Of a stretch of 64,000 bases of DNA, positions 27,331 to 54,245 are shown piece after piece (position 1 is the stretch's first letter; each line of letters begins with the position of its first letter). Made by a program: the position numbers and the translations under genes. Below the pieces are notes generated by a model. The model was given only the letters and a program-made list of their open reading frames with translations. It was not told the origin of the DNA and searched no databases. Origin of the DNA: Paulownia fortunei (Eukaryota > Streptophyta > Magnoliopsida > Lamiales > Paulowniaceae); the NCBI GenBank assembly GCA_019321725.1, contig CM033121.1, positions 6,758,001 to 6,822,000 of the forward strand. The letters run 5' to 3'.

Positions 27331-29190
27331 AGGCTCTGTTCTTGACCTTCTCTTGTGACACATGACGGAAAGTACTAGAAAGTCTCTAAGCAATATCTTG
27401 CCACCCTTTTCCAAAGAAGTAGGAGCATGTTGTGTTCTATCTTATGCATTGATGTCAAAGGCCAAGTCTTGTCTTGCTCTGAAATTTCAACTTTATTTTC
27501 ATTGGAGAGGCTTTATGGCATAAAGCACAAGGTTTTACATGCAGGGCCAACTGCTTTCTTTTTCTCTCATGCTGTCTGGTCAACCCTAGAACGCATTGCT
27601 TGAAGCTGATTTTCTAACCAACAACTGAATTATGGATCCATCATGGAAATTAAAGGACCTAAACTGGTGTAGGTAGAAGCATTCTTTCTCCAGTAGTGAA
27701 TTAATAATTGAAGCACATCAAGAAGGCTCTGTTGTTGACTTGATTATAAAATGTTGAATGCTGGTAGCTTGTTTACTTAATGCATTAACTTATGTAGCAG
27801 TCATTGGTTCTGGTATTTTAGTTTTTCAGCATAACTCCAAGTAGAATTTCAAGGAGCTGAAACCAATCATTAGAGTGAAACAAAATATCGTACTTAAGCT
27901 TTACAGTAGGCTCAGTCCAAGGGAGAGGGACCCTATCTCTTGAAGAAGTTAGGACAGCCAAAGACCAAATATAATGGCTCTGTATTAAGCAAAGAAAACC
28001 CTGTAGGCAGAACCTGAAGAACAACCTACACATTCTTATCCTCTTCATTTTATTTCATCTTACATTGTTTCCCCCTAAACTTCATCTGTACAAGGAAAAC
28101 GTGAGTTATTTTTTTTTTTTTGCCTCGCTTCTTTTATTGTCTTCCGTGGTAAAGGGATTCTGCATTTTGACTTCAATTTCATGTTCCATTCACCATCCTT
28201 GGAAATTTTTAAGTTCCTTCCAGTAAAAAATGCACGAGGAAAATCTGTGTTCATCTATGTTCCTTTTTTTCTTTTGTAATGCTCATCAAAATCCAAAATT
28301 GAGGGAAGCCTAATTGTTTTTACATGAAGGCAATATTTGGAGTTGACTTCCAGAAGGCTCATGGATCAATTATTTCGACTTTTTGTTGTATAAAAATAAA
28401 TATGGTGTAGGCAAAAGTAAGCCTTTTTGTAGACACATAGGATACACCTTCAAATATGAGCCGTTCCGGGCAACAATTTACACTTAATTAGAAGAAACTT
28501 AGATATATCATGCATTAATAGAGCAGTGATACAAAAGCTAGAATACAGTGAAGAGGGCTTAAGCAGCTTATACCATGCATGCAGCAAGGGCCTCCGTCAT
28601 ATTACAGAGGTAGGTATTGTGCTGGAAATTTTTTGTAAGTTTCCTCAGGCTGAGTTGTTACAATGCTGTTGATATTACATATCTGAAAAGTCCTCAGCAA
28701 GTCGAGCAATATATGCTACGGTTCTGTCATTTGGCCGTCAGCAAGGACGTTGAGATCCAGTATCACCTTATTCATCCTCCCATTGGTCTTACGTCTAGTA
28801 ATCTGTAAGTGCAATGTCAAATAATAGAGATAAGCAATTGTGCAACTTTAATCAACTTTTTGTAAGATACTGATTCAGTAATTATAGGTTTATAGACGGG
28901 GTTTCTTCAACTTGGATTACCTTTTCCCCCAGACGCCATTTCCTTCTGCCAGCACTTTTCCTGTTCACAAAGGCATCATGTAAGTTGCTATTGCTACCTT
29001 GGAAGCTAACTTCCTATTCTACATAATTTTTTTTGTCTGTGATAGTATGCCCTCTGTAATCTTTCATTTCAGTACTTTTTATCACATGAAAACTTACGCA
29101 TAAAGAAACACATTAATCATAGGACGAGAAGGGATTTTATCTTTTATCTTGTTTCACATTCTATCCTTCATCTTTTATTAGATGATAAAA
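27330..29190. repeat. Segmental duplication, module B (with MADS pseudo-exons)
   Basis: Matches module B' (32263-33560) in order. Shared blocks are GATGTCAAAGGCCAAGTCTT, CCAACTGCTTTCTTTTTCTC, GTTGACTTGA, AGCAGTGATACAAAAGCTAG, GAAACTTAGATATATCATGC and the exon 6-7 region of the MADS gene. It carries a duplicated 3' end of the FLC-like gene plus its downstream flank. Similarity fades near 29190. Confidence 0.9.
28716..28960 (-). pseudogene. Duplicated 3' end (exons 6-7) of the FLC-like MADS-box gene
   Basis: Read on the minus strand. Exon 6 counterpart is 28960-28921, after AACAG and before GTAATC. It is 40 bp, whereas the intact copy and the MIKC standard are 42 bp; two single-base deletions shift the frame. 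Exon 7 counterpart is 28802-28716, after CTTACAG, still 87 bp and ending in TAG. In the intact copy's frame it would read RKTNGRMNKVILDLNVLADG. The exon 7 copies differ at about 10 of 87 positions, and most changes alter the residue, so no protein constraint is visible. Exons 1-5 are not found nearby. This is a non-functional partial duplicate. Confidence 0.75.
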
Positions 29191-33093: not shown

Positions 33094-33180
33094 CTACTGT
33101 TCTATCATTTGGTCATCAGCAAGGACGTTGAGATCCATTATCACCTTATTCGTCCTCCCATTGGTCTTTCTTCCAGCAAT
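33094..33180 (-). CDS. FLC-like: FLC-like gene, exon 7 and stop
   Basis: Acceptor CACTTACAG, then 86 bases and codons ending in TAG at 33096-33094. It encodes RKTNGRTNKVIMDLNVLADD and MIEQ. The VIMDLNVLAD stretch sits where MIKC proteins carry their short hydrophobic C-terminal motif. Confidence 0.75.
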   Translation of the reverse strand: MAGRKTNGRTNKVIMDLNVLADDQMIEQ

Positions 33181-36100
33181 CTGTAAGTGCATGACGAACA
33201 ATAGAGATAAACAATTGTGCGACTTTATTCAACATTTTGAAAGAAACTGATTCAGTAATTATATGTTTATAGATAGGGTTTCTTCAACTTGGACCACCTT
33301 CTCCTCCAGACACCTTTTTTCTTCTGCCAGCATCTTTTCCTGTTCACAAAGGCATCATGTAAGTTGCTCCAGCTACACTGAAAGCTTACAATCCTATTCT
33401 ACAAGAACAATTTATCTGTGATCGTATGCCTAGTGTACATTTCAATATCTTTTATCACATGAAAATTTATTCATAAAGAAACACATTAATCATAGGATGA
33501 GAGGGGACATGGCATCTAAATTCTAAACCTTTTATTTTGTTTCACATTTCTATCCTTTTATCTTTTATTATATCAAAGCAATTGTGTTCCCTTTGAAATT
33601 TTTGTTCTCTTTCTCCTAGTTATTGGAGTACTTGATAGGTTAAGCATTTTGGTATGAGAGAAGAGATTCCAAACTCCAGATCATCGTTTGAGGCACTGTG
33701 GCTTGTCTCATCTTCTTTCCTTTTAAAATCATTTGAAATCAGGACAGAGCCAACGAACTGGAATGACATGATTATAAAGTGGCTTAAGATTGTATTCATC
33801 GAAAGATCTTGAGTTTAATCCAGATTAAGCAACCTATAATGACATTTAGATAGGAGTCTCATGATGTCTACTTCTTGTCTGGAAGTGGCTTGAGATTGTA
33901 ATCATCCAAAGATCCTGAGTTCAATCCAGATTAAGCCAACCTAGATGTACAGCAGGACAGTAGGTTACGATGACATTTAGATAGGAGTTTCATGACGTCA
34001 ACTTCTTGTCCAGAATGTTGGTTGCAGTATAATATTTTTTTAATATCTGAAACTATCACTTGAAAGCCGCACTAATCAACCCATATTTAGGTTCATAGTT
34101 GATATACCAAAGATGTTACAAATATGACTCACCCAGACACGTTCAAGTCAGAAGAGTTATACTTAAAAAGAGAAGCGAAACCCATACAACGTAGAAGTCT
34201 AGATCTAGGAGAACTGGGTAGAGTTAAGATCTAGGAGAACTTGATAGAGTTAGATCTGCTTTCAGAAACTGTGAAGCTACAATGACTTCTAAGCCAGCCT
34301 CATGATCCCTTACCTAGTTTATAGTTCCACTCCTGTAGGCATTTAAGGTAAATATTATGAGACAATCAGGACAAGCTATATATTTTCCCAGAAGCTACAA
34401 GTTTGAGGTTGGGAGCCATCAAGTTGAGGTCCTATCTCAACCTAATTATACCACTCTCTTAGACCTTTAGTACTCTAAAGCAGAGTACCATTTGTTGCAA
34501 TGGCTCTCAGTAATGGAAAATACAGAAAATGCATACCTTTTCGTGAAGGCTTGATATAGAATCCAGCAGCAAATGTGTCTGCATGAATTGAAGTAATTAA
34601 TTCTCAACCTAAGGAATGATGTATATGCAAAAGACAAAAAAATTAATCATTTAGCCACAGGATTATGATGATTGCAAATTTTCTCAAGCTTATTCTGTAT
34701 GTTTACAGGTTGACAGAAAATGTAAAGAAGGAACCTAACTCAGGGTTCTAAAATTCTTGCTAATGAGGCTAAGCTCAACAAAAGGTAAACTACATTACTA
34801 TATTAATTTAAGTTCCCTGGTTCATGAAATTGCCAATTTTTTCTCATGTAAGCCACAGACACCCTGTCAATCACTGGAATTCACACAATATATGAGAACA
34901 CATAAGCTAACAAGAATTCAAAGTTTTTAAGTCACAAATGCATCATATTTGCTTGGCCGAAATAACATGAAAATCAATATATGGAGGTCGGTTGGCAGAA
35001 CCAATGAATGAGAATTATATCTTTACGGAAGAAAAATTGATTTTCACCCTGCTCTCTCAACAGGCTATCATGTGGGACCTACTTTAGCACATGAAAACAG
35101 AAAATTCGAGCTTTTCCAACCATTTTTCTTCTTTAATACCCTGAGGAAAAGGGGAATCATGTTTATTATTCATATGCATCAGCAGGGGGATCATATCAAG
35201 CCTCAAATTTCAAAATCGTCTCTCACAATTCTTCTTCCTCGCTCTTTTGCCATGATAGTGGGGTCCAAATTCTGTCCCATGGAGCAGCTAATGTTTATCC
35301 TTGAATTTACTGTCCTCTGGAGCTGCTAATTTTTATCCTTGAATTTACAGAGTCTATGATTATACTGTGATAATGGACTACATATATTTGATACTAACCT
35401 TCATGTACAAGGTGTTTTGCAACAAAGACAGAATTCTTCAAACGCAACAAATCTTCGGATCACATTATTCTCCATTTCTCCACACCCACTTGTCAAGGTA
35501 AGTCTCTGTTCATTCAGTACGTGACATTCTAAACCCACAAGTATGTTGCTCAATTAGCGCAGTCAAGAGTATGACAAATAGTTGCACCTTTACATGGCTA
35601 ATTGTTCATTTAACATACCATACGTATCAGTTGTTTAAATCCGCTCTATCTAAACGCCAAAACCATTACTTGCTGGCTGTACTGGTAGATGAATGGTAAT
35701 CTATTTATTAGTCAACCCGAGGAAGCTTCATGAAACTTTCTCATACTTCTCTTTGACAGAAATTCTTACTTCCTCCACATTCTCTATTATCTGTCGTCTT
35801 TTATAGAAATCTAAACTAACTTTTGTTTTTAATTGCAAATGTTTAAGTACTGGATTCAGACAAAAATTCAAGAAAATCTATATGAGAGGATTTCAAGAAT
35901 TTCATAGCAGAAAGAGTAAAATATATAAAGCTAAAAAATATAAGAAAGATGAAAGAAGAAAACATAGAATGGAAAGATGAAACTGCAAAACGATTTATTT
36001 AATCGAGGGAACAGTAAACCTTCACTGATCTTGTTTGTATTAGTGCATCCTCAAGTTGTTTCTCCAGATGTACAAGGTCTGTCACACTGAGCTGGTCAAC

Positions 36101-37235
36101 ACTTGGCTCCCCAAGTTCCCTAGGAAAAGAGATTTAATTTATAAATAAACCAAGACTGAGAGCTCAATAACAAATTCGAGAAAGTTTTATAGATGGATAA
36201 AGTTGTTACCTTTCGACAATTTGGAGGAGCTCCCTGCTTGTGAGCAGACCCGCATATTTAGAGTACTGTTCCTGCCATGCAAACAGGCCAACAATCATTG
36301 TGTGAGACAGTTATCCCAAACAGGCTTGATTGTGTCATGAGACTACAGAGGGATCAATCATATTCAAATATCAACATAATTATCCCAAATTTACAGAGCC
36401 CATGTTTTAAATTTCTTAGAAGTCAGAGGAAAGTCATTTATCTAGTTGTGAAATCAACTCACACATTTGTTAATGAAATAACATTAGTATTAAAATTCGA
36501 TTCAAACCAACAGCAACGATAGTTGGAATATTAGTAGTTATAGAACTCATAAACTTCAAGAATAAGTATATTTTAATCATTTTATATTGATTACTAGAAC
36601 AATACTATCGATTAAATGATTTAAAACAAATTTCAAATTTATGCAGTATGTTCACCAAGTCATACTAGAGCATAGGGACAGATAGTGAAACCTCCCCCAC
36701 TCTGCTCTAAATGTAAGGACAGACTCATAATAACACCTAGGCTGTTTTCTATCATGACTTTTACTGAAAAAGATGGCAGAGGCTGATTGAGTGATACCAA
36801 ATGTGTACATAAAAGATGGAACATTTGAATTTGAGTTAGTAAATTGTAATAATATGTAGTCATACAGATGAATTGTTAAATGGGGCAAAGAATCCCTGGA
36901 GACAATATTCTGCATTACCAACTATCTGGAAAAAGTCAACACATATTCTAGTACGAGTAATATCCCATTTTTAAAACCTTCCAACAAGAAATCTTATGTT
37001 AGACAAATATTCAATCATTTGAAGAGATTCTCCCAAACAGGCTGCTGCACAAATGAACATAATACATAATGAGATCATGTTTTGAGTTAATCACCCAGGC
37101 TCAAACCCACACAATAAGGATTGAAGTCCACTTTAAGCCCGAAAAGTAAATCTTACCTGTGTCTCACAAACTCCCGTCGAGCCACCCTGTTCTATTTCAA
37201 CATGACTTTGATATTGTTGCAGGAGCCCGGTCAGG
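33094..37235 (-). CDS. FLC-like: FLC-like MIKC-type MADS-box gene, exons 2-7
   Basis: Six exons on the minus strand are joined by GT..AG introns: 37235-37157 (79 bp), 36271-36210 (62), 36119-36020 (100), 34578-34537 (42), 33339-33298 (42) and 33180-33094 (87, TAG). These sizes and phases are the conserved MIKC pattern, and the frame stays open throughout. The K-domain shows KYAGLLTSRELLQIVER, GEPSVDQLSVTDLVHLEKQL, SISSLHEK and EKMLAEEKRCLEEK, with hydrophobic heptads; wording is closest to the FLOWERING LOCUS C / MAF clade. Family members are transcription factors that repress flowering. With a usual 185-bp exon 1 the protein would be 198 residues, close to FLC. Exon 1 was not found, so the 5' end is open. 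SOC1-like is the alternative but less likely. Confidence 0.8.
33298..33339 (-). CDS. FLC-like: FLC-like gene, exon 6
   Basis: Acceptor GTGAACAG, donor GAGAAG|GTGGTC (GT kept but a weak donor), 42 bp in phase 0. It encodes EKMLAEEKRCLEEK, in the position of EKML.EEN..L in FLC. Confidence 0.8.
33561..33773. other. Intron 5 of the FLC-like gene, part without features
   Basis: Intronic sequence beyond the end of module B'. Nothing recognised. Confidence 0.5.
33774..34010. repeat. Tandem duplication in intron 5 (106-125 bp units)
   Basis: GTGGCTT.AGATTGTA.TCATC at 33779 and 33885 starts two copies sharing TAATCCAGATTAAGC-like and GACATTTAGATAGGAG. The second copy has about 20 extra bases (GTACAGCAGGACAGTAGGTT). 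The core GAGTTCAATCC resembles a tRNA B-box, but there is no A-box or cloverleaf to support a SINE. Confidence 0.85.
34201..34256. repeat. Tandem repeat in intron 5 or flank (26 bp, 2 copies)
   Basis: AGATCTAGGAGAACT at 34201 and 34227, each followed by a GATAGAGTTA-like end. Confidence 0.85.
34537..34578 (-). CDS. FLC-like: FLC-like gene, exon 5
   Basis: Acceptor TCATGCAG, donor GAAAAG|GTATGC, 42 bp in phase 0. It encodes THLLLDSISSLHEK, in the position of the TELML..VE.LKEK segment of FLC. Confidence 0.85.
35273..35349. repeat. Tandem repeat in intron 4 (38 bp, 2 copies)
   Basis: TGGAGC.GCTAAT.TTTATCCTTGAATTTAC occurs at 35280 and 35318. Confidence 0.85.
36020..36119 (-). CDS. FLC-like: FLC-like gene, exon 4 (K-domain core)
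   Basis: Acceptor TTCCTAG, donor GTGAAG|GTTTAC, exactly 100 bp. It encodes ELGEPSVDQLSVTDLVHLEK and QLEDALIQTRSVK, the K-domain helix that ends in (S)(V)TR(A/S).K in FLC and MAF proteins. Confidence 0.9.
36210..36271 (-). CDS. FLC-like: FLC-like gene, exon 3 (start of K-domain)
   Basis: Acceptor TGGCAG, donor GAAAG|GTAACA, 62 bp. It encodes EQYSKYAGLLTSRELLQIVE. The YELLE(L/I)V-type motif is a hallmark of the FLC clade. Confidence 0.85.
37157..37235 (-). CDS. FLC-like: FLC-like gene, exon 2 (I-domain)
   Basis: Acceptor TTATCCAG, donor ACACAG|GTAAGA. The 79 bp begin in phase 2 and encode SLTGLLQQYQSHVEIEQGGS followed by TGVCETQ. This corresponds to the L..(I/L)L.RYQ.H segment that follows the MADS domain. 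Confidence 0.8.
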
Positions 37236-40200
37236 CTGGATAATGATAAACGTGAGTGAGGTGATGCTCATGTAAAGGAAATAATCATGAGGGGCGCGAC
37301 AAAATTTTCAATGATGGCAATCAGAAATTCAGGATATACACAGATAATAAGACCACGAAACAACAAGAAGACCGCAAATAGATTTTTGTTCTGTTCCATT
37401 ATAGGATTGGATCAGGACTACAAGCTGAAGTATACCTATGGCGATGAAAAAAATAAATTAAAAACTCAACAAAATTGGGACATGTTTGTAAATAAAACCA
37501 AAATCGTTTTTTTCACTTATGAGCACCTAGATGATGCTATCAACTTACAAACAATAATACATTGAAGATCGATATTAGAGAGTTAAAAAGAGAAAAATGA
37601 AAAAGAAAACTTTAGCTGGTTAGCACCACTCTATGGAAGGGTGTTAAGAATATGATTGTAATTTCATGATAACAGTTTGATTATCATTAATTTTCCTCAT
37701 CAGAAACACTTCAGCTAGAATATTTTCCAAGAAGTCATTACCCAACTTTGTGACCTAGTCCGGAACAGGAAATTCACCCTTAGGCTATGTTTGGTTGCGA
37801 TCCAGGAAAATGTTCTCTTTCCCCCGAAATAAGATCATGTTTGTTTCTCCATTCCCCTAAAACAAATTCATTCTTCCCCAAAATAAAATAGGGCCCACTA
37901 TATATCAACATCATTACATTATTCATTTATTATATTACTATATACATATATATCATCTTTTCTACATTCAAAAATACAATATATATAACATTAAAAAAGA
38001 CTGATATGAGACCACTTATCCAACACAATATTATTACAGTACAAATTGTCCCCTTCCAAAACATAAACAAACATTATTTTCACACCTAAATCTCTCCCAA
38101 AACACCTTCCCCAATCCCCCAGAACACCCAGAACATAACAAAACGTATAGCATTTCTCAACAAAAATACGACAAAGCAAACACAAAGCACAAATAAAATG
38201 GAGAAAAAGAAGAAATATGGAAAAAGTATCAAATGCAACATTAGGAAATATTCTATAGATATCTTGGAACCAAGTCATGGACAAGTTATACAAATAGGAG
38301 TGCAGAAAGTTCGGAAATGCTGGAGGTTAAGAAATGAGCTAAACAATATTAGAGAAACCCCTTTCAAATGGTCAAATAGGAGTAAAGGGGAACTTATGAT
38401 GGAAACATATCATGCAAAATATTAGATTTCAGTAACTAAAGCATAGCAGAGATGAGATTGTGTATAACTCCAATATTACATTATACTTAAATAATATGAA
38501 TGTGACTATAATTCATTATGGAGTCATTCCTCCCATGGATAATAATTCCTGGACAAAGTTACAATCTCAATTGCCATGTATATAATTATAAATATGGTTT
38601 TAAAGTGGATAGGTATGAGGTTAAATGTACTAGTCAGCCCATGTCTCACAAGTCTTAAAAAAAAAACACTTGCCAAGGCTGGGTAATGACCTGTGTGGTT
38701 TTGCTCCTGGAAATGTACTGAAAGAAATTATTGTGTCGAGGCTCAATTCAATACTACGGATCTCATCTCACCAATAAACATGTGGTTTGCTTTCTATCAG
38801 CCATAAAGTATACAAAATTCGAGCAAGTCAAATGCATCACACAATCCTAGCTAAAGTTCCAGATGTAAATCGAATCATAGGTGTATAGTGCAGTCATTGA
38901 TAAGTAAAGGAAAAGAAATATGTTTCAAATACTAGCTTGCTGAACTACACAAGAAGAGATAAAGAGGGATGATTCCCTCCATTCAAGTTTTGTATGCATC
39001 CTGATCGTGTCAGAGCTTAAAGCACTTAAGCACGCTCCATTAATAGTGGACTCAATTAACATCAAGAAACATGTCCAAATATGTACACCTTAACAACGTA
39101 CAGCGTAAAAGAGACACGATCTTGCAATATGACATGTAGGAATGAATGTCATAAACTATATAGAAATATATACACCTTAAGAACGTACAGTGTAAAAGGG
39201 ACATGATCTTGCAATATGACATGTAGGAAAGAATGTCACAAACTATATAGATGTATTGCTTCCGCAGGGAAAGAACTTTTTTCATAGAAAAAAACTTTAT
39301 CCGCCCTAGAAACAAAATAAGTCATAGCATATCAACAAAGAATATGAGAATGCAGAAAGCACACATGTTGAACATTTATGCAATTAGAAAATACATTCCT
39401 TACAAACAGGAAATGTGTTCCTCATCACTAGTACAAAAAGATGGTGGGACAACTGGAACTGATTCAAACAAGAGACAGAATAATTGACCATCTGATACAT
39501 ATATATCTACTTTTATGCAACTTAAGACCTCAACGAAACAATTTTTTCTGCATACATTAATATATAAGGCAAAATACATCAAAATGCTAGTGGTCAATAT
39601 GGTTCTTTTCTGGGCTTGCACATGCCACTGTTTCAACGTGTCCCCAATGTGTTCCCCTATTGAACTTCCTAGTGATCATACCATATACCTATTTACTAAA
39701 ACCTACCACTGAAATTGTTCATCAAGGTAAAAAGCCTTGTGGATCCACAACCAAAAAGAAAATGTTTAGTTACTTCTAGGTATCACAAAGTATGCACTTT
39801 AGTAAAAAACCAAAGAGACATTTTTCATGCAAATTAATGTCATATAGAAGTTAAGAGTCTGAAAATTCTCTGTTGTTTTAGAACTAATGTATTCATGTCA
39901 AAAAAAGGATTGATAACAGAATCTGAAGAAACCAATGGCAAAATACAAAACTAAAAGCATAAGCAACAAAATGGTTGAAGAATAATCTTATACTTTTCCT
40001 TAGTGTGTTAATTAAGCTTGAAGAAGTTCAAAGTAGTGATTACTATTCTTTGATACCAAAGGGAAGACACTCTGTGCTTAAAAGGGACTTGAGACTGTAC
40101 ATCCACACTATAATAACTTGAGATAATCTAAGTTGACAGAAACTTGCGCAACAATTTTTTTTTATAAAACTTTAGACGAAGAGATTTCTCAAAATGGATT

Positions 40201-41449
40201 TACAGAAAAGTGGTATAGTTAGACATATATATTGTGTATCCTATTTCATGCTAGCACGAGGGAACTTGTTTCTCAATGCACATTCAACATGCTAAGGTAC
40301 AAGTAGCAGAATAAAAATGCAATATATTTCCCTTATGATAGACTTAGAAAGGAACATATAGTGATACTGAACAAAAGGTTTCTCAAAGAAAGCTCTTCAT
40401 AATCAACACTAGGACTCAAGTCTAGTTGTCTAAGACCTATTCGTCTGGCCTTGAAGTGCCGACTCCTTCAACACTAAATGAGACATATAGTGTATTTTTC
40501 TTGCAATTTTTTCTTTGTTGCAATTTAGTTAGTGTGTATCGACGTAAGTCAACTACTAAGACTATGTGTGAGTTTAAATTATAGTAACATTCTCTATTTT
40601 GTAAATTCTAGGATTTCTTTTCTTGATTTACAAACTTGACAACCAAATAACAGTCGAGATTTTGTTGACAATTGATGAAATACACATTTTTTATTTTCTC
40701 TGTGCTTTCCATTTCTTAAAGTTGAAAGATTAAAGTTAAAACATGTTTAGAGTATTAGAGAAGTCTTAGTTTTTTACAATAATTCATTTTTCCCACAAAA
40801 TTAATGCTAAAATAACTTTTTTTTTCTAGGTTATGTGTCATAATTTAACTTTTCAATATCCAAAAGGAGAACTTATAGAGGCAAATGTGAGATTTTTAAT
40901 TGTTAAATAAATATCAACGCCTTTTTTCCTTTTAAATGAAAATCAACTCCAAGTTTAGGTAGCTATCTCAAAGTAATTCCACTTACCAATAAACCAGATA
41001 GCAATATGGAAGTCGTAGAGCTCGTAAAGAAATTTCAGTCCACAATGCTTAAAAGAAGCTTTAGAGGTCAAATAGAATAAATATGCACACACTAAAGTTT
41101 ATCACTCTATTTGGTTTTTGCTTTTCACATGGGAGGTTGCCACCATGAGCTTAAAAGGACCATTAGTGGCTACAAGACCTTAAAAGGCAAACAATTGCAT
41201 ATTATGCATGGGCAATAACTTCCAACACATTATTGCCTCAAATTCTCATGAATATCACTAGAGCTCATAAAATATTTAAAGCGCTAAAAATGAATGTTTA
41301 ATATATGTTCCAATTTCACATTTTTGAATCAATATTGTTTTCAAATTGTTTTACCAATATTTCACATGATAAACTAAGCCACTTTTCTATTTATCTTCCT
41401 AAAGTTTATTATATCTATGTAGCTTCTCCAATACAAATGACTTATTAAA
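37236..41449. other. Presumed intron 1 and/or 5' flank of the FLC-like gene
   Basis: No MADS-domain exon was recognised in a reading of the minus strand. FLC genes have long first introns, so the sequence directly above 37235 is probably intronic. An AT-rich insertion-like patch (about 37785-38125, starting GGCTATGTTTGGTTGCGATC) and a tandem duplication (39080-39253) are the only structures noted. Confidence 0.45.
39080..39253. repeat. Tandem duplication, 2 x 87 bp
   Basis: TACACCTTAA.AACGTACAG at 39084 and 39171 begins both copies. They share CTTGCAATATGACATGTAGG and differ by a handful of substitutions. Confidence 0.95.
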
Positions 41450-41451
41450 TA

Positions 41452-41695
41452 CTCTCTCCGTCCCAAGTTAAACGTCTAGTTCAACCCATCACGACGTCTT
41501 AAAATCAGAGTTAAAAAAGTGTAAGTTTGTCTACTCTTATACTATCACCTTTAAAAGTGTGGCTGGAATTTAGAGGTATCATATTAGTACTTCAACTAAG
41601 AAGGGTGTTTTGGAAGAAAAAAAAATTAGAAAATGAAGTTTTATTTTGGATAGTCCCAAAAAAGGAAATAATAGCAATAACTTTGGGACAGTGAG
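41452..41695. mobile_element. Stowaway-like MITE
   Basis: Left end TA|CTCTCTCCGTCCCAAG and right end CTTTGGGACAGTGAG|TA are inverted matches of the Tc1/mariner-Stowaway signature CTCCCTCCGTCCC, with TA on both sides as target duplication. Length is 244 bp with no coding content. Presumed non-autonomous. Confidence 0.75.
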
Positions 41696-41697
41696 TA

Positions 41698-43740
41698 GAA
41701 GTCCTCTTTAGGAATGATTTATTCACAAATCTACACTAAACATAAAGCCTGTTATATTTTATATTTCCAAGGAGATGGAAATTATAAATGTAAAGTGTAT
41801 GAAGTACCTCACTATAGAGGTTAAACTTAAGGAGGAGCAACATGTGAATAATTAGCTCAATGATATGTAGGATTGAGGGATCTAGGATGGAAAAATAAGG
41901 TGCAAGATGGAAAGATGCAATATGCAAACAAGTAAGTGAAAAACTACTTTAGAACTGAAGCTTCTAAAGTTCACATTAGATTTTAAAGGAAAAATCTTTC
42001 AATATTGGAATGGGTTTGAATGACCCCATAGACTACTCATGTTTTGCATACACTTCTCCTGAAAGGTTTGAGCTCGATAGATCATTTTTATTTTAAGAAA
42101 AATTGTTCTTCACTTCTTTGGTTATACGCAAAAATTAATTTAGTTAATTCAATTTCTTTTCTTGAATCATAGTTCCCTCATTTGGTTTCTTTAATTTCAT
42201 AATTAAATTTATAGTTGTAAAAGTCAATGTCGAGTACATATTCCAAAATTGTGAGGATCATTTAGCCACCAAATTCAAGATGTCCTCTATAACATTTCCC
42301 AAGAACTTAGGTTGGATAAACACAACTTCAAAATCTATAGGTGTCATTCACATGTGGGCCTAAGTATATGTGCATAATAGATTGAATGATAGACAAGAAA
42401 GATCAAAACTTTAATGACAAGCCTAAGAATAGTGTAAGATTATATTTGGATTCCATATGGACTCATCCACAAATCTATTTAATATAAAATCTTAAGCAAC
42501 AGGTCCATTCTAAAAAAGCTTAATCAACTTGTGCATCAAACAAGGCAAGCTTTTGTTGCACTTGGAAAACTTCATAACCTAGATTGTGTAAAGCTTAATT
42601 TATTAGAAAGAACTTCCCAATTTAACTTTTACATGAGTGATTGAAAGATCGGAACATCTACTCATTAATTGTCAAAAACATTAAACAAATAATATAAACA
42701 TAAGCAAAGGTTCTTTGGTTTTATTTGTAAAGAATTTGATTGTTGATGAAAGAATAGTATGCCTTTAATCAGAGTAAGGGATGTGGAATACAATGAAATC
42801 ATTTTAGTGTAATATGCCTAGTTAAATTGTTGTATGCCTCAAAAAACCTCAATCAAAATTGACTAATTATGCGATTGTGTGTATTCTTAATTTTAAAATA
42901 TAAGATGTTGAGCACAAACAATTCAAAATCTCAACCATTGTTATGCCTTCAATCTTAAGATCCAAATATAATGACACTTGGTCGCATATTTCCTTCATAA
43001 ATTAACGTGGCCATCTCAGTCAATAAAAAAACTGAAAATTTTAAAAAATTATGATAATGGTATTTTGGAACAATAATCAATGGGGAATTATTATCTAGAA
43101 AAAACTATCCCTCACTCTTGCATGCCATCTCAATCTTAACTGTTATAGTGACATAAGAATCAACCTTCAAGAATTCCATTTTGTTACATATTGGTCTACA
43201 CAATCATATCTACAAGTGATCATAAAGGAAATATTTAATACATTTGATAACTAAAAGGCAAATGATAGCTATCATAATTGCGGATATGTGTTTCCCCAAT
43301 AGGGTATGTTGTTGGTATCCTTCTTTATTTGTAATGTTATCCAATTACACTCAAAATTGGTAATTCTGCAGGTGCTTCTACATGATGTAAGTCACAGCTC
43401 TCACGCTATCAACCAGAGTAGAATAAATTCAACACATGAAAAATAAGCCTAAATGAAGTGTTGGTGTAAATCAATTGTTGAAGCATCCCCTTCACGAAAA
43501 TGTTGAAACAACTACCAAAGTGTTAGAACCACTTCAAGGATAGAGGAAAATAAGAATGTTCCAACCTAAAAGGTTCAACCAAAATTTATCCAAGCAACAA
43601 AGAAACATGTCAATGACAACAAAAGGTGAAAGTGAACTACATTATGCGCTGCAAAATTTGCTAGACAAATAACGATCATGTGAGAGAGACAAAACTAACT
43701 AGTAAAAAGAAAATGAAATTGAATCAAACTTATTATAAAT
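41698..43740. other. No gene recognised
   Basis: AT-rich sequence between the MITE and a tandem repeat. No splice-linked frames or element ends. Confidence 0.5.
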
Positions 43741-43945
43741 GCCAAGACATATCTAACTTCATACGCAAAACAAATGCAAATATAGAGAACACTGTATACC
43801 AAAAGAAGCAACGTTTCACGAACAAACCAAAGAGGAAACCTGCTATAAATCCTAAGAAATATCTAGCTTCCTAAGTAGAACAAATGCAAATATAGAGAAT
43901 GCCTTGTACCCAAAGAAACAACATTTCACGGACAAAGCAAAGAAA
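43741..43945. repeat. Tandem duplication (about 110 bp, 2 copies)
   Basis: CAAATGCAAATATAGAGAA at 43771 and 43881 marks two copies that also share ATATCTA.CTTC and CATTTCACG-like blocks. The small plus-strand frame over it follows the repeat and is not a gene. Confidence 0.85.
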
Positions 43946-44439
43946 AAAACGTCTAGAACTTGAAAACTAATAAAGCGATCTCCAAACTGGGAAGAATGAC
44001 AAACAAGGGCGGGTCCAACATTGCATATTTGAGGCGTTGGATTTACTTTAAAAACTTTAGCAAGGAAAAGTAGATTTAGGAATTATGAGATGCAAAAGAC
44101 TCAAAGCCTAATATGAAAAATAATAATCTATAAATAGAGATGGCATCATTTGAGGAACTAAAGTAAAGTTATGAAATTTATGTGTAGATCATCATGAACT
44201 AAATATAATGAAGATACATTAAGATAATAGTATAAAAGTATACTAAATATACAAATGTTTAATTTATTTATTTAACACTTAATTTTGATTCTCAACTATC
44301 TTACAAATGCAAACCAAATATATTGGACAATTAACAAATAATTAAACATATTCACAATTTAAACAATAAAATATATTCGTGGTTGGCAAAATGGATCTTA
44401 GCGAAGCTATCCACGCATGTTTTAACCACTACCTTTTAA

Positions 44440-44507
44440 CTTTTTCAATTCTCACTGAAAAGTTCACGCCAAGTCAAATGGGAGTCCGATAGTTGCGGCG
44501 GAGGGAG
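44440..44507. mobile_element. Terminal fragment of a Stowaway/mariner-type MITE
   Basis: The end GCGGCGGAGGGAG|TA reads on the other strand as CTCCCTCCGCCGC. It is followed inward by TTTGACTTGGCGTGAACTTT, close to the common eudicot Stowaway subterminal sequence. The partner end was not found. Confidence 0.6.
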
Positions 44508-44509
44508 TA

Positions 44510-47500
44510 TTAAATTAGAAACAATGAGAAATGAGTGTCATTTAATGGTGTAAAATCTAAAGTAATAAGGATTTCTACAATACTATTATTCAAGAGGATT
44601 ATTTTTGGACTATTTCTTCTTAAGCATCTCCACTCATTTGATAGAGTGAATGCAGAGTGAGTGCATAATCAACATTTACCTACTATTTGGTTCCACAGTA
44701 AATAGCAGAAAGAAAAATAAATAGGGAAAATAAAATTTTAAACTGGTTTCAAGAAAATCTAAGAAAATATAGAAAAGTTCATAGGATCTTTATGTTTTAG
44801 AAGGCCACATATTTCCCTACCGCTAGTGCAAATTATGCTCGCATTATTTTTTCTACTTTTTCCCCATTTCTTCAACGTAACAAGATAATCTTATATTATT
44901 TTGTTTTGATTTTCTTTCTCTTAATGAATTCCTATTACATCCTCATGTACGTGATTGTAAATTCTCTTAGTATTGCAATCGTGATCGATAAAGATATAAC
45001 GACTCAACACCATAAGGATTTAAAAAAGTACCATTTCTTTTTTGTTTTGTTTTTTGTTTTTTAATTTTGATGTTGATCTTTTGAATATATCCATTTAAAA
45101 ATTAGGATATAATGGCTTTGTATTTTGTAAGTGAACATAGAAGAATTATGGAGCTGATAAAAGAACTTTAGAAAGTTTTAGTAGTTTTGATATCCTAATT
45201 GCTTTAAAAATATGTGAAAATTTGGCACCAAAAAATTTAGCACCGACATATGGAAAATACAAATTCTCTTCCTAATAAGATGATCCCTCACCTTAGTTAT
45301 TTCTTTTTCCCTCATTTTTGTGAAATCAAAGAGGGCTTTAGGCATCATATGGCATATCATTTTTTATATCTTGTTTGGTTGAGAAATACTAATTTGCTAA
45401 AATTTTGAGACAAATACAATTCTATATCAGACCAAATTGATCCATTACTCATGCTAAAGAGAATGATGATCAACTTCCTCGTGTGATGAGATTGAAGCAT
45501 ATATATGGTTCCATGGGAACTTGTGATGACATTCATGGCTCGTAATGATTCTCTACCTTAAGGGAGAAGCTAGGACTAGTTTAGAAACAAAAAGAACAAA
45601 AATCACAATGCTTAAAAGTAATTTTTCTATTATTCAAGTCGAAAAATGAAAGTACAAGGTAAAGGATTGAGGAAAGCTTGGACAAAGGATTGGATAATCA
45701 TAGTTGAGTTTGGAGATAAAGCTTTAGTTTCCTTGAATTTTTGACATTAGTTCAATGCCAATTAACGAGATGAAGTCAAACACATATAATTAGTACAAGA
45801 AAAAATAGCCACGATGATTCAAAATCCAAATGGATGACATTTTTTTAAGCCCCTCATTTTAGTAATTATTGAATTAAGAATGATTTATGCATAAATAGTA
45901 AATGGTCAGCTCATTAACTAAGAACTCCTAAGATGTAATAATGTTTTACTTTACGGACATGATACAACATGGTGGGATTAGACTTGGACTTATCAAATAT
46001 CTTTTATGTCAGCATTTACCAACTCGAGCCTAGTCACACCTTAATAAATCTGAATTAATAGAGCTTTGAGACTAATTCTATGTAACAAATGCCTCCTTAA
46101 TTGTGTTTTGACAACGACGACACATTATTGGATGTCGTTTTTTATATGGTTTGATAAAACAAAACATATAGCACCATACTTAGATCTAGTGGAACGTGAG
46201 TTGGAAATATAGGTCAAGACGACACAACTAAAAGAGAGCATGGTGTTTAGGGTTTGAATATCATATAGTATGGTAATTCAATCCAAAATTTGCACCGAAT
46301 TTGTAGATAGATTAGTTTATGATTAGATTACTGTATCTTTCATTTTGAACTTCTATAATGAACATGCTTGTGATTTTGTATTTTTTCCATCACGTGTAGG
46401 AGATTGCTTAATTTCTCTAAGCAAATCTCTTCAATATCTTAACGATTAATCTACGCAAAACTCTCTAAAATCTATTGTTATGTAAAATTAATTTTCACAT
46501 AAAGACTAGTTATTTATTCCATTTCATGTGCTTAAAACACTATCTTTACTCTAGAAACAAACGAAGAAACCATTTTCACATAGAGACTAGTTATTTACTC
46601 TAGAAACAAAAAGTTCTAGCTCCAGTGGAGAAAAATTAAGATGTGCAACCAAATTTGTGTTAAATAATATTATTATTCATATTAAAATTTCATAAATTCC
46701 TTACAACCACCTTAAAAGGTCGAGACTTCTTTGAAGCTTATGCTTCGGAGATATGGAGAATTATCAATTAAAACTTCAAATTGTTATAAGAGAAACATAT
46801 TCTTCCACATCAACATCAGCTACGACGATATATGTAATAACAAAATTAGTTAAATTCCACATTGGTGATGCACGTGATCATACAATTATTTTAAAGAGGT
46901 TAGCAATGTTGTTGAAATGAGTTGATGATTTTAAAATGGGCAGAATTGTTATTGTATAGAGCAATTTCATGTACATATAATTGTAATGTTATCACTTCTC
47001 AGTGCTTTAACATTTTATATATGCTTGTTGACAAGTATAGCCTCATGTCCAAGCTCAAAGCTCTCATGATGACTTCTTCTCATGCATGAACTGAAGAAAG
47101 GAAAGTGAAATTTGAAATATCCCAAACAGAAACAAATCAGGTAGAGGAGAGGCGAGGAGAATGTTATTGTGGGAAAAAGAGGGTTTGGACATAATATTAA
47201 CAAAGTAAAAAGGCAAAAAAGTAAAAGGAAAAGAGTTAAGAGCTTAGAGCTGGATAATAATGTTAGGTAGTTTAGTTGGAAAGGGATTACTGTCACAATT
47301 AAGCTATAAAGTTTCAAAACAAGAACAAACTAGTTCTTGAAACTTCGTAAGTGACCTCAACCAAACCAAAATTTTACAAGCTTAAATAGATTTTGATCTG
47401 GTTACACTTATTTCACATGGATTATTGAAAAAGTAGTGTTGTGAGTATTACTTTTTGGTATTCTGTAATTTTCCTTTTCATTTTGGTTTTTCTTTTCCTT

Positions 47501-49321
47501 TCTATTCAATGATACTGTTTTCTTTTCCCGAATTCACTAAAGTATCATGATTGTTTTCTATAATCCATGCATCTTGTCATATGTTTGACATGAGTGAAAA
47601 GTGGCATAATGTAGAATGGGCAGCTTTCTACAAACTTCTACAACGCACTTGACTTCCTTACATTCGTATAGTATCAATAGGAAAAAAATGCTAACATATC
47701 AAGCTCAAATAACACGACGAATCAAAGAATAATGAACTGTGCAAACAAATTTATCATTTACAATTTTTCATGTGATCTTTGTGATATATAAATCTATAAT
47801 AAATAGTTCGAAGAAAGCATAAATCATTCACAAAGTTAATTTTCAGACTACACAAGGAAACTTAAATTTTTATGAAATGCTAAATGAGAATAAAAAAATG
47901 ATACTTTTAGTTCCACATAAGGATTCGCTTAGTGTAAAGTTTATGCAGAATGTAGTTTAGGTAGGTAAACTATATGAATTTTAAAGACTTAAAAATTTGA
48001 TTTGAATATAGAAAGCACTATTTTACCCAATTTTTTGGTGTAAACAAAATCAATCCCAACTTCCAATGTTAAGATGCATATGGATTCTTTATTACCATGT
48101 AAAATCTAGTTAGTTGTGATCCTTGTACACAAGGAATTTTAATAAAAGTTTTTTTCATAAATAAAGTTAGCAGCTTGTTTAATAATGACATAGTGTTAAT
48201 TCCTCCGAAGGTTCTATTATTATATTATATCTAATCTTGCTAATAGTAATAAAGAAATATTACTTTAGTCAAGAAGATAATCTAAATGGTAGAATTGCTA
48301 GTTTAACAAGAAAAGTTGAGGCCATGGAACTTAAAAAAGTAAAGAAAATCAGATCTACATGCAGCTTTATAGAAGCGATTAACATAGTATAAGTTTGCTT
48401 GTTAAACTTAAATTTAGTTATAGTTATTATCTTGAACTTGTTTTGTACCTAGATGTTGTTTAAACACGTTAATTTAGCATTAGTTCATCTATTAATGCTT
48501 ATTTAAAAATAAGACAACCATAACTATGATCTTGAATGTCTATATCTATAGTTTTAATTTTTAATTGATTTACCCATTAATCCTACTTACAAAAACAGGA
48601 TTACTGAAATAAGAAACTACGAATATCTTATAGTCAATTCGTCCACATAAATATGGAGTCGGTGATGGACTCGAAGACAATATTTGTGTCTCCAACAAGA
48701 GCAAAACCATATATATTATGGTCTATTGTTCAATCATTATTGTTATAATGAGTTGATATTCGTACGCTACATCAACTAGCACACATGGATTTTTAGAAAG
48801 TTGAGACGTAATATCAATTTGTAGTTACATACAACTTTGGGTTTATATTAATACAACGTCAATTAACTAACACAAGGAATTTTAGAAAGTTGAGGATGTA
48901 GAAATACGAGTAATATCAATTTTGTTGATACACACAAGGAGTTCCCACGTTGTTGCTCTGTGGGTGGTTGCAATGGTAAGTTGTGATGATCAGGAAATAA
49001 GGCTACAATTGAAATTGCACATAAGGATTACTTTCTTCTAAATCTTTCATCTTCCCATCTTTTTCATCATTTGAACTGTCACCATTATTTTTTGAACCAA
49101 CAAATGAGTTAAATGGTGAAAATCAATTCAAATCTAAACAAACAAACCCACCCTCCGTACGTATATTAACAAGGAGAGAGACCATATCTCAACCAATATA
49201 AGCCTTTAAGTCAGAAGGTAAGGTAAGGAAGTTTCTAACCCTGATGCTTATGAATGATGTATTTCAGTTAACGAGGAAGTTTCTAACCTTAAGGTTCATG
49301 AAGGAGATATTTCAGCCGACA
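44510..49321. other. No gene recognised
   Basis: Long AT-rich stretch. The minus-strand frame at 47317-47015 was examined for a MADS domain and rejected. A partial direct repeat (CACATA.AGACTAGTTATTTA near 46497 and 46576) is the only structure noted. The lower part may still include FLC-like intron 1. Confidence 0.45.
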
Positions 49322-50771
49322 AGGATTATGATCTTCCCATTGCAATTAGAAAATGAGTGAGGAAATGCACTAGCACTCAACGCTCAGTATACTTGCTATC
49401 CCATTATGTCTCCTATTAGAATTTATCACCTATCTAAACACTGTCACTGTTCCAAAGACTGTCATAGTGAGATTAAACATAAAGAGTGGAAAAAAGCTGA
49501 AAAGGATTAAGACATGAGAATTAGTAGAACTACCAAAATGAAAGATGCTGGCAAGGTGCAAGCAGGTATGCACTATAAAACACAAGGCAAACGGATCACT
49601 TGAGAGTTACAGGCAACGCTGGTTGTTAAAGAATATACTCATATGGAATAGATTACCTTAAGGCATTTGCTCCGTTGCTAAGATGAATACAATATGGAAT
49701 TTGTTGTCTAGCGGACTAAAGGTGGAGATTATAGTAATTTGATGCCAAAAATGCCTTTCTACATGGTGACCTTGATGAGGAAATTAATATATAGACACCT
49801 TATTGAGAAAACTTGCTAGAATCAAGGAACTCACACATTGTTCATCAAACATTCCACTTTAGAAGTTACTACTTTAATAGTCAATGTTGACGTATATAAG
49901 TAGCAAGACCTTATAAAGGTACAGTAGTAATAAGACACGATAAAGGTACAGAAAATTTGATGGGGTGTTTAATACGAGAATTCGAGATCAAGGAACTTAG
50001 CAAATTAAAGTACTTCCTTGAAATCAAAGGTGCTCACTTTCAGCATGGATTTTTCATCTCTCAACAAGGTATTTGCTAGATTTGTTGCTAGACTACAAAT
50101 CAATAGTGTAAATCTATGGAGAAAATAATTGAGCAAGATCATCGGCGCTGCGAAGCTCTTAAAGATTCAATAGCTAATAGGGAACACTTGTAGGCAAACT
50201 AATCTGTTTGGTACAAGACTAGACAATACTTGTGATGTTAGGGCAGTTTACACATAATCTAAAGGAAGTACATCTTTGAGCTGGCCATCGCATTTTATTG
50301 TATTTGAGACACTCCAAGAGAAGAGATTTAATATTCAAGAGGGGTGAGAAACTCAAACTGGAGGCTTATATAGATGTTGATTATGCTAGGTCAATAAATG
50401 ATTGGAGGTTACGTCATTTGTAGCTTTCTTGGTAGAAAACATATAACTTGGGGAAGCAGAAGTAAAATTTAAAGTAATGGCATTGGGTGTACGTGAACTT
50501 TTATGGTTTGAAGTAAAATCTCAACAATAAATATTGCCCACAATCCAATTCAAAATGATCGAACCAAACATGTATAGGTTGACAAGTTTACAGACACTTC
50601 ATAAATGAAAAAATAGACGTTAGCTGATATGTACTCCTTTTGTGTCCATAGAAAAAAAACATTTGGCTAATGTGTCAACTAAGGGATTAAGTGGTACAAC
50701 AATTCAATCGATTACGTGGACATAATGATCAAGTTGGGATTGGAAAATATTCAACAACTTGAGTAGGGCAG
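49322..50771 (+). pseudogene. Ty1/copia reverse transcriptase-RNase H remnant
   Basis: Plus-strand frames with many stops show, in order: DYDLPIAIRK (linker before RT); LVVKEYTH; FDAKNAFLHGDLDEEINI, a near-perfect copy of the copia RT palm motif (FD.KNAFLHGDL.EE); HTLFIKHST and LIVNVD where YVDD is expected (second Asp lost); EIKELSKLKYFLEIKGAHFQ and HGFFISQQ; then the RNase H block AYIDVDYARSINDWR followed by TWGSRS-like and ALGVRELLW-like pieces. It is clearly the C-terminal half of copia pol. No gag or intact integrase was seen upstream, so the copy is truncated. Confidence 0.9.
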
Positions 50772-50999
50772 TGTCAGATTTATAGAGATTACAGGGATTT
50801 TATAGTTGGTTATACATGGCATAGTTAGATAAAGAATATTTGTATTTAAATGCAAATATTGGGTAGTTATAGAGTAGTTTATCAAATTACCATATTATCA
50901 GGGATCACAGCACCTGATTCTTTAGGAATAGGATCATATTTTTCGAGGAATGTTTTGTTCTTCCAATTTTTGTACAAATTTTATATCAATTTTCTGCTA
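50772..50999 (+). repeat. Presumed start of the copia 3' LTR
   Basis: A purine-rich GAGTAGGGCAG is followed by TGTCAGATTTATAG, the expected arrangement of polypurine tract and LTR start just after copia RNase H. The right end could not be located. Confidence 0.45.
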
Positions 51000-51660
51000 G
51001 TCTCTTTATGCGTGTTACTCTTCATATAGGCTATAAGCTCCATGACTTCTAGTCTTGCTTCTTACCCTTCGGGTTGGGAATTTGTATTGTCTTGATCATC
51101 TATACTGGATTTCATTGGCTTAACACTGTTGCCAACCTTCTCTGTATGGTTTTTTGGAGCTTTCTCCAATGCTAGGACTTTCTTGATAGCTTCACACTCC
51201 TTTTCCTTGTCCATCACTTTCGTTACTCTTTTTCTAGGTCGGTAGTGGGTGTAGGGGCGCAGCTGCTGTGAGCTTCCATGCCTTGGCTATTATCGCCAAC
51301 TTGTTTCTTTCAAACTACGCCTCATCGCTGGCAGTCTTTTGGGAGGTAGCCTCCTTTGAAATGGAGTAATCTCCATTATGATATTGATGCGTATTCAAAT
51401 TTCATCTTTTTGGCTTGAAGACTCTAATTGCATTGACTTTTTAGCCTAGGGATTGCAATGGTTGTTCCTACCTGGGTGTTGTAGGCTTGATTACCTTCTC
51501 CTTCAAAGGTTATTCAAGGAGTCTCAGTCTTACTTCCTCCATCTTTACTGTTTTTGGCTTCGGCAATGCCTCTTTTGCGTCGAGGGAATGCACAACCTTT
51601 TCTTCGCCTCTACTTGGGGACGATTTGTTGGCTTGTGAGACTCCATCGAGTGAATGAAAA
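51000..51660 (-). pseudogene. Unrecognised broken reading frames, minus strand
   Basis: The minus strand contains charged pieces such as KVVHSLDAKEALPKPKTVKM, FERNKLAIIAKAWKLTAA and KVMDKEKECEAIKKVLALEK. They lie in different frames with stops between them. Base composition here is noticeably less AT-rich than around it. This could be a captured host gene fragment or the extra ORF of a retroelement. I do not recognise the family. A plus-strand frame at 51453-51638 overlaps it and looks like its shadow. Confidence 0.25.
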
Positions 51661-52011
51661 ATTAATGAATAAAGTAAGCCACTTAAATAAATGATTGATT
51701 ATGGAATGTTGAGAATGTGAATAGTCACAAATCTCACATTAGAAGAGTGGAACAACTTTGCCTTACATATATAGAATCTCATTTTAGTAAGGAGTAATCA
51801 AATGGAGCTCTTTTATGGTGCACTCTAATGGTCTTTTGGGTAGCTTTAGCTAGCTCAAGGAGCTACGAGGATGGTGCATAGCACCATCCGAACCCGAACC
51901 TGCACCCGCATGTCACAAAGGCCGAATTGGGCGCTTTAGAGGCGCACTTTGCACTTAGCGAGGAGCTGAAGGGCCTTATATTTTTCAAAAATTGAACCAA
52001 GATGGCTCAAA

Positions 52012-52126
52012 CAATTATCCCATATTCTTTTGAATCCATTTTCGAGGAATGTTTTGTTCTTCCAATTTTTGTACATTTTATATCAATTTTCTAATCAATT
52101 ATCCCAGATTCTTTTGAATCCATTTC
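52012..52126. repeat. 30-bp direct repeat flanking a copy of 50940-50996
   Basis: CAATTATCCCATATTCTTTT at 52012 and CAATTATCCCAGATTCTTTT at about 52096 flank a 54-bp segment (CGAGGAATGTTTTGTTCTTC and onward) that also occurs at 50944. It reads like a templated insertion with duplication of the target. Confidence 0.8.
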
Positions 52127-52686: not shown

Positions 52687-52783
52687 CTAAGGAGTTACTC
52701 AGCCAATTGAGAAGATTGGCCAAATAATGTCACACTAAGGAATTACTCAGCTAATTGAGCAAATTGGCCAAATCATGTCGCAC
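52687..52783. repeat. Tandem duplication, 2 x 48 bp
   Basis: CTAAGGAGTTACTCAGCCAA at 52687 and CTAAGGAATTACTCAGCTAA at 52735. Both copies end in ATTGGCCAAAT.ATGTC.CAC. Confidence 0.9.
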
Positions 52784-54189: not shown

Positions 54190-54245
54190 TAGTCCCTGCA
54201 AAGGTTTACTTTTACTTAACGAAATATAAAGTTGTAGTTTGTAAA

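What the first reader, a model, noticed from the sequence alone, without database searches (positions are those of the whole stretch)
33094..37235. FLC-like MADS-box gene assembled from six exons that ORF calling misses
Seen: six exons of 79, 62, 100, 42, 42 and 87 bp with GT..AG borders and one continuous open frame. Known: these sizes are the conserved MIKC pattern, and the K-domain wording fits the FLC/MAF clade of floral repressors. Inference: a functional or recently functional flowering-time gene in a region otherwise made of dead elements. The exon 6 donor (GTGGTC) is weak, which could cause retention of the 117-bp intron 6 or alternative C-termini.
Basis: partly seen in the sequence, partly recalled or inferred. 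Interest (0 to 1): 0.75.

Follow-up and report, generated by a model that had tools for sequence, protein, structure and literature searches.

The report
Split FLC-like MADS gene in Paulownia
The six exons are real and belong to an apparently intact gene of the flowering-time (FLC) family in the tree Paulownia, whose first exon lies 36 kb away behind a giant intron, so that public annotation has cut it into two hypothetical genes.

Summary
In detail: minus-strand exons of 79, 62, 100, 42, 42 and 87 bp in one open frame. The MADS exon (185 bp) lies outside the window behind a 36,312-bp intron 1, so window 37,236-64,000 is intron of this gene. Public annotation splits it into consecutive models: Pfo_024391 (MADS exon read into the intron) and Pfo_024390 (K-box, 'partial').

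FLC membership rests on a tree (34-row clade, 100/100), the exon pattern and an SBP-SEP3-FLC cluster present on C17 and C7. The C7 paralogue has the same exon pattern and a 37,137-bp intron 1; dN/dS between them is 0.33 (0.21-0.52). The gene looks functional, but no RNA was available.

The weak exon-6 donor is shared with the paralogue. A predicted sesame isoform skips exon 6, which suggests a switch in tetramer formation more than intron retention. Verdict: a new member of a known family, wrongly split in annotation.

The parts
37157..37235 (-). exon 2 (79 bp, I domain)
   Evidence: CAG|GTAAGA donor..ATCCAG acceptor; C7 paralogue exon 2 is also 79 bp
36210..36271 (-). exon 3 (62 bp, start of K domain)
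36020..36119 (-). exon 4 (100 bp, K domain)
   Evidence: best-scoring piece in the genome search with the exon 2-7 product
34537..34578 (-). exon 5 (42 bp, K3 micro-exon)
33298..33339 (-). exon 6 (42 bp, K3 micro-exon) with weak donor AAG|GTGGTC
   Evidence: the C7 paralogue has AAG|GTGATC; predicted sesame isoform P0015 lacks 14 residues here
33181..33297 (-). intron 6 (117 bp); retention would add VVQVEETLSINI and stop
   Evidence: 92 of 117 aligned bases identical to C7 intron 6
33094..33180 (-). exon 7 (87 bp, C domain, ends ..IMDLNVLADDQMIEQ*)
   Evidence: C7 exon 7 is 72 bp, in frame, with DLNVIP
37236..64000 (-). 3' part (74%) of intron 1, which is 36,312 bp in all and would run on to window coordinate 73547; exon 1 lies outside the window at 73732-73548
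   Evidence: block 38665-39721 matches the genome only here and, in part, in intron 1 of the C7 paralogue
28716..28960 (-). decaying tail duplicate: exon 6' (40 bp, frame broken) from 28960, intron 6', exon 7' (87 bp, open) at 28802-28716
   Evidence: part of a copy of window 32501-33573 in three pieces (82, 85 and 88% identical) within 27632-29370; exon 7 v 7': 10 of 87 nt and 7 of 28 aa differ, dN 0.132, dS 0.120

Best explanation
A single intact seven-exon MIKCc MADS-box gene of the FLC subfamily (exons 185/79/62/100/42/42/87 bp, 198 aa, 40.6 kb from ATG to stop) in Paulownia fortunei, on C17, in the SBP-SEP3-FLC cluster. Shown by sequence: the structure, the frame, the clade, the cluster, the paralogue on C7 and the split in the public gene models. 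Inferred: the primary transcript crosses a 36-kb intron; the protein binds CArG boxes as a dimer through its MADS and I domains, forms tetramers with other MADS proteins through its K domain, and so tunes seasonal flowering or bud dormancy; the weak exon 6 donor lets some transcripts skip a 14-residue K3 micro-exon, giving a form weak in tetramer formation, as for the SEP3 splice variant lacking residues 161-174 (PMC6639411, passages read).
For: Exons and frame. MADS exon of fitting phase 36 kb upstream on the same strand. In the 134 kb fetched, exons 2-6 have no rival match: the best other hit is exon 4 to the SEP3-like gene, E 0.088. Public models Pfo_024391 and Pfo_024390 bear consecutive tags on a contig of 17,753,237 bases, the length of C17; Pfo_024391 equals exon 1 for 61 residues, then reads into intron 1. 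Full-length relatives join the same exons (P0001, 78% over the whole query). C7 paralogue: 185/79/62/100/42/42/72 and intron 1 of 37,137 bp. Intron 1 homology: 16 plus- against 2 minus-strand hits; without a repeat block, 11 of 15 plus hits form one chain whose score 0 of 20,000 random placements reach; one block matches only its C7 counterpart. Tree: 34-row FLC clade 100/100 with A. lyrata FLC, Arabis PEP1 and A. lyrata AGL27; C17's end branch 0.059 against a median of 0.21. dN/dS 0.33, bootstrap 0.21-0.52. SBP at C17:6881633 and C7:302809, SEP3-like at C17:6855557 and C7:324047, same order and strand as FLC.
Against: No RNA from Paulownia was available. dN/dS is a pairwise figure and does not by itself assign constraint to the C17 copy. 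The exon 6 donor is weak. Exon 3 is 62 bp where the inferred ancestral FLC has 68, exon 7 87 against 105 (PMC4852290, section 12 read). The strongest intron-1 match (517 bp, 77%) proved to be a high-copy repeat and was dropped; the remaining matches are 57-67% identical, and the pairing near the 5' end differs between the chains with and without the repeat. No paired RY motif like that of Arabidopsis FLC (recalled) was seen near the 5' end of intron 1. The published census counts four FLC/FLM genes (PMC10048600); I found two and cannot reconcile this. FLC-like genes differ in the direction of their effect on flowering.
Confidence: 0.9

Rival explanations
1. Two separate units, as annotated: a MADS-only gene (Pfo_024391) and a K-box-only gene or fragment (Pfo_024390), the ancestral gene having been broken by insertions in intron 1.
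For: Public models are separate; the intron is huge and holds at least one high-copy repeat.
Against: Splice phases fit; Pfo_024391 reads straight through a GT donor; the paralogue has an intron 1 of the same size with collinear DNA, so the length seems to predate the duplication; both halves remain conserved (dN/dS figures by part: exon 1 0.097/0.529, exon 2 0.247/0.501, exons 3-6 0.098/0.218, exon 7 0.118/0.360).
Confidence: 0.05
2. A young pseudogene: open frame but no longer transcribed or constrained.
For: No transcript data; weak donor; a decaying tail copy 4.4 kb downstream shows local turnover.
Against: Seven exons without a stop or frameshift, short end branch, dN/dS 0.33, and members of the C17-type lineage also in Sesamum, Andrographis, Salvia and Erythranthe.
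Confidence: 0.05
3. The tail duplicate at 28.7-29.0 kb serves as an alternative terminal exon, giving two C-termini.
For: Exon 7' is open over 28 codons and follows an AG acceptor; MAF1 of the FLC clade uses mutually exclusive exons (PMC3266260, passages read).
Against: Exon 6' has lost frame (40 bp); exon 7 v 7' shows dN about equal to dS (0.132, 0.120), on only 10 changes.
Confidence: 0.05

Closest known systems
FLC-like genes of core Lamiales, C17 lineage (Sesamum P0001/P0002, named 'MADS-box protein EJ2' and 'MADS-box transcription factor 7-like isoform X2'; Andrographis P0003)
   Same: 78%, 77% and 75% identity over the whole length; same C-terminal I.DLNV.A pattern; same lineage (97/91, 83/94, the latter not starred)
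   Different: These are full-length public models, though named after other MADS genes; Paulownia's is split
C7 paralogue of the same genome (Pfo_009243, partial)
   Same: Exon pattern, intron 1 of 37 kb, weak exon 6 donor, SBP-SEP3-FLC cluster
   Different: 43 of 193 aligned residues differ; DLNVIP in place of DLNVLA; GC donor after exon 3
FLC / PEP1 / AGL27 of Brassicaceae
   Same: Same 34-row clade at 100/100; seven exons; exon 6 skipping known for Arabidopsis FLC (PMC3266260, passages read)
   Different: Long branch between them (0.96); LMLKL (LxLxL) at residue 138 of A. lyrata FLC and PEP1 is absent here; Brassicaceae lost the SBP-SEP3-FLC collinearity (PMC9779283, section 5 read)
CsFLC1-3 of tea
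   Same: Woody asterid FLC-like genes; SBP-SEP3-FLC setting (PMC9779283)
   Different: Tea is said to hold one member of each of three core-eudicot FLC clades; here two copies of one lineage were found with my queries

Membership tests
MIKCc MADS-box | MADS domain | tested here: met
   PF00319 hit at C17:6831562-6831705, 87.7 bits, joined as exon 1
MIKCc MADS-box | K-box | tested here: met
   PF01486, E 1.3e-14
FLC subfamily | Place in the FLC clade of a tree with SEP, AP1, AGL6, SOC1, SVP and AG | tested here: met
FLC subfamily | Seven exons of 185, 79, 68, 100, 42, 42, 105 bp (inferred ancestor, PMC4852290) | tested here: met
   185/79/62/100/42/42/87; exons 1, 4, 5 and 6, said to be conserved, agree; 3 and 7 differ in length
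FLC subfamily | SBP-SEP3-FLC cluster (PMC9779283) | tested here: met
   SBP, SEP3-like and FLC-like in the same order and strand on C17 and C7; genes between them were not looked for
FLC subfamily | Cold-induced Polycomb silencing from an RY nucleation site at the start of intron 1 (Brassicaceae; paired RY recalled) | tested here: inconclusive
   One CATGCA at 293 (C17) and one TGCATG at 451 (C7) in the first 500 bp of intron 1, no pair; at the motif's density over the introns 0.3-0.4 are expected per 500 bp
FLC subfamily | Repression of flowering | not testable with these tools
   Needs plants

The most novel reading that the evidence does not exclude
After a duplication shared by core Lamiales the two FLC lineages parted at the C-terminus: the C7 type carries DLNxxP, an EAR motif that can recruit TOPLESS, and the window's C17 type carries DLN without the P (mostly DLNxxA); neither Paulownia protein keeps the LMLKL motif of Brassicaceae FLC. 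The pair would then be a recruiting repressor and a non-recruiting partner or competitor, with exon 6 skipping as a further switch. Basis: with exon 7 left out of the tree, DLNxxP is in 13 of 14 rows of the C7 lineage and 0 of 13 of the C17 lineage, which has DLNxxA in 12 and DLNxxT in 1. Which state came first is open: outgroup tails read by eye vary (DLDALS, DFNNLA, DLSVLP).
Probability: 0.3. Interest if true: 0.6.

Novelty: new member of a known kind. Interest (0 to 1): 0.42.

Why it matters
FLC-like genes outside Brassicaceae diverge fast and are easily misnamed or truncated. Here the published gene models split one of them, so a census built on proteins with a MADS domain (PMC10048600: 89 genes, 4 in FLC/FLM) may hold it as a MADS-only protein or lose it. 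A correct model gives Paulownia, a perennial tree, a testable pair of FLC duplicates with different C-terminal motifs, and a case of a 36-kb intron 1 in a gene family whose first exon and intron 1 junction is regulatory in Arabidopsis (PMC7783157, passages read).

Tried and rejected
Rejected: (a) a MADS exon within the window: two typed MADS queries gave only chance hits, best E 0.047. (b) The 517-bp, 77% identical block in both introns as a conserved regulatory element: 40 scored matches in the genome, 4063 first-look candidates; taken out before the final collinearity count. The earlier count with it gave 9 of 16 plus hits in the chain; of 20,000 random placements 6 reached its score and 38 its number of hits. 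Cruder controls gave chain scores of 95 (reverse complement), 0 (reversed) and 835, 898 and 1106 (three block permutations) against 1230; the permuted scores come close, so that control does not separate well. (c) Exon 7' as a used alternative end. (e) A first exon 3 border for C7 was off by one base, which spoiled the whole-gene dN/dS; corrected. (f) A typed SBP domain found nothing in the fetched DNA, because the SBP genes lie beyond it. (g) In one search the label 'A' means DLN without P; Petunia bears it because of a DLN at residue 116 outside exon 7; P0026 reads NLNVIP; Torenia, Penstemon and Primulina were placed in neither lineage; 8 of the 14 DLNxxP rows are Salvia. The 14 DLNxxP rows as one side of a branch have support of only 50/35; the two lineages have 83/94 and 93/93, not starred. 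(h) Paper searches: Lamiales FLC and EAR terms, 12 listed of 86, none on the subject by title; DLNxxP, EAR, MADS, TOPLESS, FLC, 12 listed of 24, none on Lamiales FLC by title; Paulownia, FLC, flowering, 15 listed of 24, one Paulownia MADS study. That is not proof of absence. (i) A check of block 39982-41364 for repeats did not complete.
Full report
Observation. The product carries a K-box (PF01486, E 1.3e-14). The window has no ORF of 150 aa or more with an ATG/GTG/TTG start, so ORF calling does miss it.

Source. The window is C17:6758001-6822000 of a 509-Mb genome. C17 is 17,753,237 bases long and C7 24,734,851. The protein search returned Pfo_024390 and Pfo_009243 of Paulownia fortunei on contigs of exactly these lengths, the first 100% identical to the window's product. 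I take the source to be P. fortunei (Lamiales, Paulowniaceae); this is inferred from these matches, not stated by the genome tool.

The missing exon. Two typed MADS queries found nothing beyond chance in the window. In the flanking DNA a MADS exon lies at C17:6831732-6831548, same strand, 185 bp, ending AACAG|GTTAGC; joined to exon 2 it gives a 198-residue protein. Intron 1 is 36,312 bp. Window 37,236-64,000 is therefore 74% of intron 1, its 3' part.

The public split. Pfo_024390 (120 aa, 'partial') starts within exon 2 and ends at the same stop. Pfo_024391 (137 aa) equals exon 1 for 61 residues and then reads into intron 1. Their locus tags are consecutive. Pfo_009243 (143 aa, partial) is the K-box half of the C7 paralogue; no Paulownia model of the C7 MADS exon was among the 120 listed of 1413 hits. 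The MADS census of P. fortunei lists 89 genes, all with an SRF-TF domain, four in FLC/FLM (PMC10048600, passages and section 15 read); which genes those four are I could not see, as supplements were not available. My own queries found two.

Paralogue and constraint. On C7 the same gene has exons of 185/79/62/100/42/42/72 bp and an intron 1 of 37,137 bp; its exon 3 donor is GC. Of 193 aligned residues 150 are identical; dN 0.119, dS 0.358, ratio 0.33 with bootstrap limits 0.21-0.52 (500 resamplings). With the 61-residue MADS query the two FLC-like exons score 120 and 98 bits, the next of 106 matches 81.5.

Intron 1 is old. Comparing the two introns gave 16 plus-strand and 2 minus-strand hits. 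The strongest hit (517 bp, 77%) is a high-copy repeat and was removed; of the other 15 plus hits 11 form one collinear chain, a score that 0 of 20,000 random placements reached. These hits are 57-67% identical and the introns are AT-rich (GC 0.31-0.32), which random placement does not control for; the pairing near the 5' end is not the same as in the chain built with the repeat. The block at window 38665-39721 matches the genome only here and, in part (156 bp, 71%), in intron 1 of the C7 gene. The block at 42655-43229 has no other match at that tool's sensitivity, not even its C7 counterpart; a search with 39982-41364 did not complete.

Cluster. Upstream lies a SEP3-like gene with eight exons (185/79/68/100/42/42/134/76) whose product ends SGWLP and groups with recalled AtSEP3 at 96/81. 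SBP domains lie at C17:6881633-6881773 (minus) and C7:302809-302952 (plus), in line with the SEP3-like and FLC-like genes on both. Tea authors describe this SBP-SEP3-FLC cluster as the ancestral setting (PMC9779283, section 5 read).

Tree. The FLC clade holds 34 rows at 100/100, among them A. lyrata FLC, Arabis PEP1, A. lyrata AGL27 and an unnamed A. thaliana protein that I labelled MAF. C17 falls with Sesamum, Andrographis, one Salvia and Erythranthe (7 rows, 97/91); C7 with Sesamum AGL27, Perilla, another Salvia and Torenia (5 rows, 95/87). Sesamum and Salvia thus hold both types, which points to a duplication shared by core Lamiales. C17 and C7 have short end branches (0.059 each; median 0.21).

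Splicing. The exon 6 donor is the weak AAG|GTGGTC in C17 and AAG|GTGATC in C7. The predicted sesame isoform P0015 lacks the 14 residues of exon 6, while P0002 has them. Of the 120 listed hits, 9 have a gap of 10 or more residues in this part: one is this exon 6 skip, five lack 14 residues at exon 5, three are otherwise short. Arabidopsis FLC has an exon 6 skipping form, and a Brassica rapa variant at the intron 6 donor gives skipping (PMC3266260, passages read). K3 micro-exons encode the multimer-forming part (PMC7714060, passages), and SEP3 lacking residues 161-174 loses tetramer formation (PMC6639411, passages). Hence the expected effect of the weak donor is a share of transcripts without exon 6; this is inference. 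Retention of intron 6 would add VVQVEETLSINI and stop.

Tail duplicate. Window 32501-33573, the part of the query that matched, has a copy in three pieces (82, 85 and 88% identical) within 27632-29370; how far it runs beyond 32501 was not examined. Its exon 6' is 40 bp and out of frame; exon 7' is open but dN and dS to exon 7 are about equal (0.132, 0.120; 10 of 87 bases differ), and intron 6 is as similar as exon 7 (0.88 and 0.885). I read it as a decaying copy.

C-terminal motif. C7 ends ..IIDLNVIPDGQMIE, a DLNxxP EAR motif as defined in PMC6283911 and PMC9956375 (abstracts seen in the listing); C17 ends ..IMDLNVLADDQMIEQ. Of the 120 listed hits, 18 have DLNxxP and 36 have DLN in the last 40 residues without the P (35 DLNxxA, 1 DLNxxT); of the 120 listed hits none has DLNxxP. 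On a tree of 39 rows without exon 7 (2 own, 37 picked of the 120 hits), DLNxxP is in 13 of 14 rows of the C7 lineage (93/93) and none of 13 of the C17 lineage (83/94); the 14 DLNxxP rows, Torenia included, need two changes against a shuffled mean of 11.7. LMLKL is in A. lyrata FLC and PEP1 and in neither Paulownia protein. Arabidopsis FLC tethered to DNA triggers PRC2 and deacetylase activity and is said to contain an EAR domain (PMC8408475, passages read). Whether DLNVIP recruits a corepressor here is untested.

Verdict. An ordinary but well-kept FLC-like gene, wrongly split in public annotation across a giant first intron, with a duplicate whose C-terminus differs in a way that could matter.

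Noticed in passing
window 27632-29370: Copy (82-88% in three pieces) of the 3' end of the gene and its downstream DNA, 4.4 kb downstream in the same orientation
   Followed up: yes
window 29889-30188 (+): ORF reading like a chloroplast ATP synthase epsilon (atpE) fragment, probably plastid DNA in the nucleus; identified by eye from the ORF list, not searched
   Followed up: no
window 83-1925 (+): Four open pieces that read by eye like RNase H and integrase parts of a Ty3/gypsy-type retroelement pol, in broken frames; not searched
   Followed up: no
C7:384822-384883: The C7 paralogue's exon 3 is followed by GCAGCC, so intron 3 would be GC-AG
   Followed up: partly
C17:6822629-6823145: 517-bp repeat, 40 scored matches (39 others at 81-84%) and 4063 first-look candidates
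   Followed up: partly
C17:6860900-6858030 and C7:395086-392233: 2.9-kb stretch, 89% identical in opposite orientation, beside both clusters; likely a mobile element
   Followed up: no
C17:6588150-6588290 and C7:455078-455218: A second pair of SBP domains on the same two chromosomes, on the far side of the FLC-like genes
   Followed up: no
protein hits P0038-P0111: Many FLC-like proteins of Erythranthe with close locus tags on chromosome 11 (0724-0744 hundreds), a sign of local expansion there; the seven sampled rows fall in the C17 lineage
   Followed up: no
protein hits P0001-P0003, P0031: FLC-clade proteins of Lamiales carry names such as EJ2, transcription factor 7-like or RIN-like, which I recall as belonging to SEP-type genes
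   Followed up: partly
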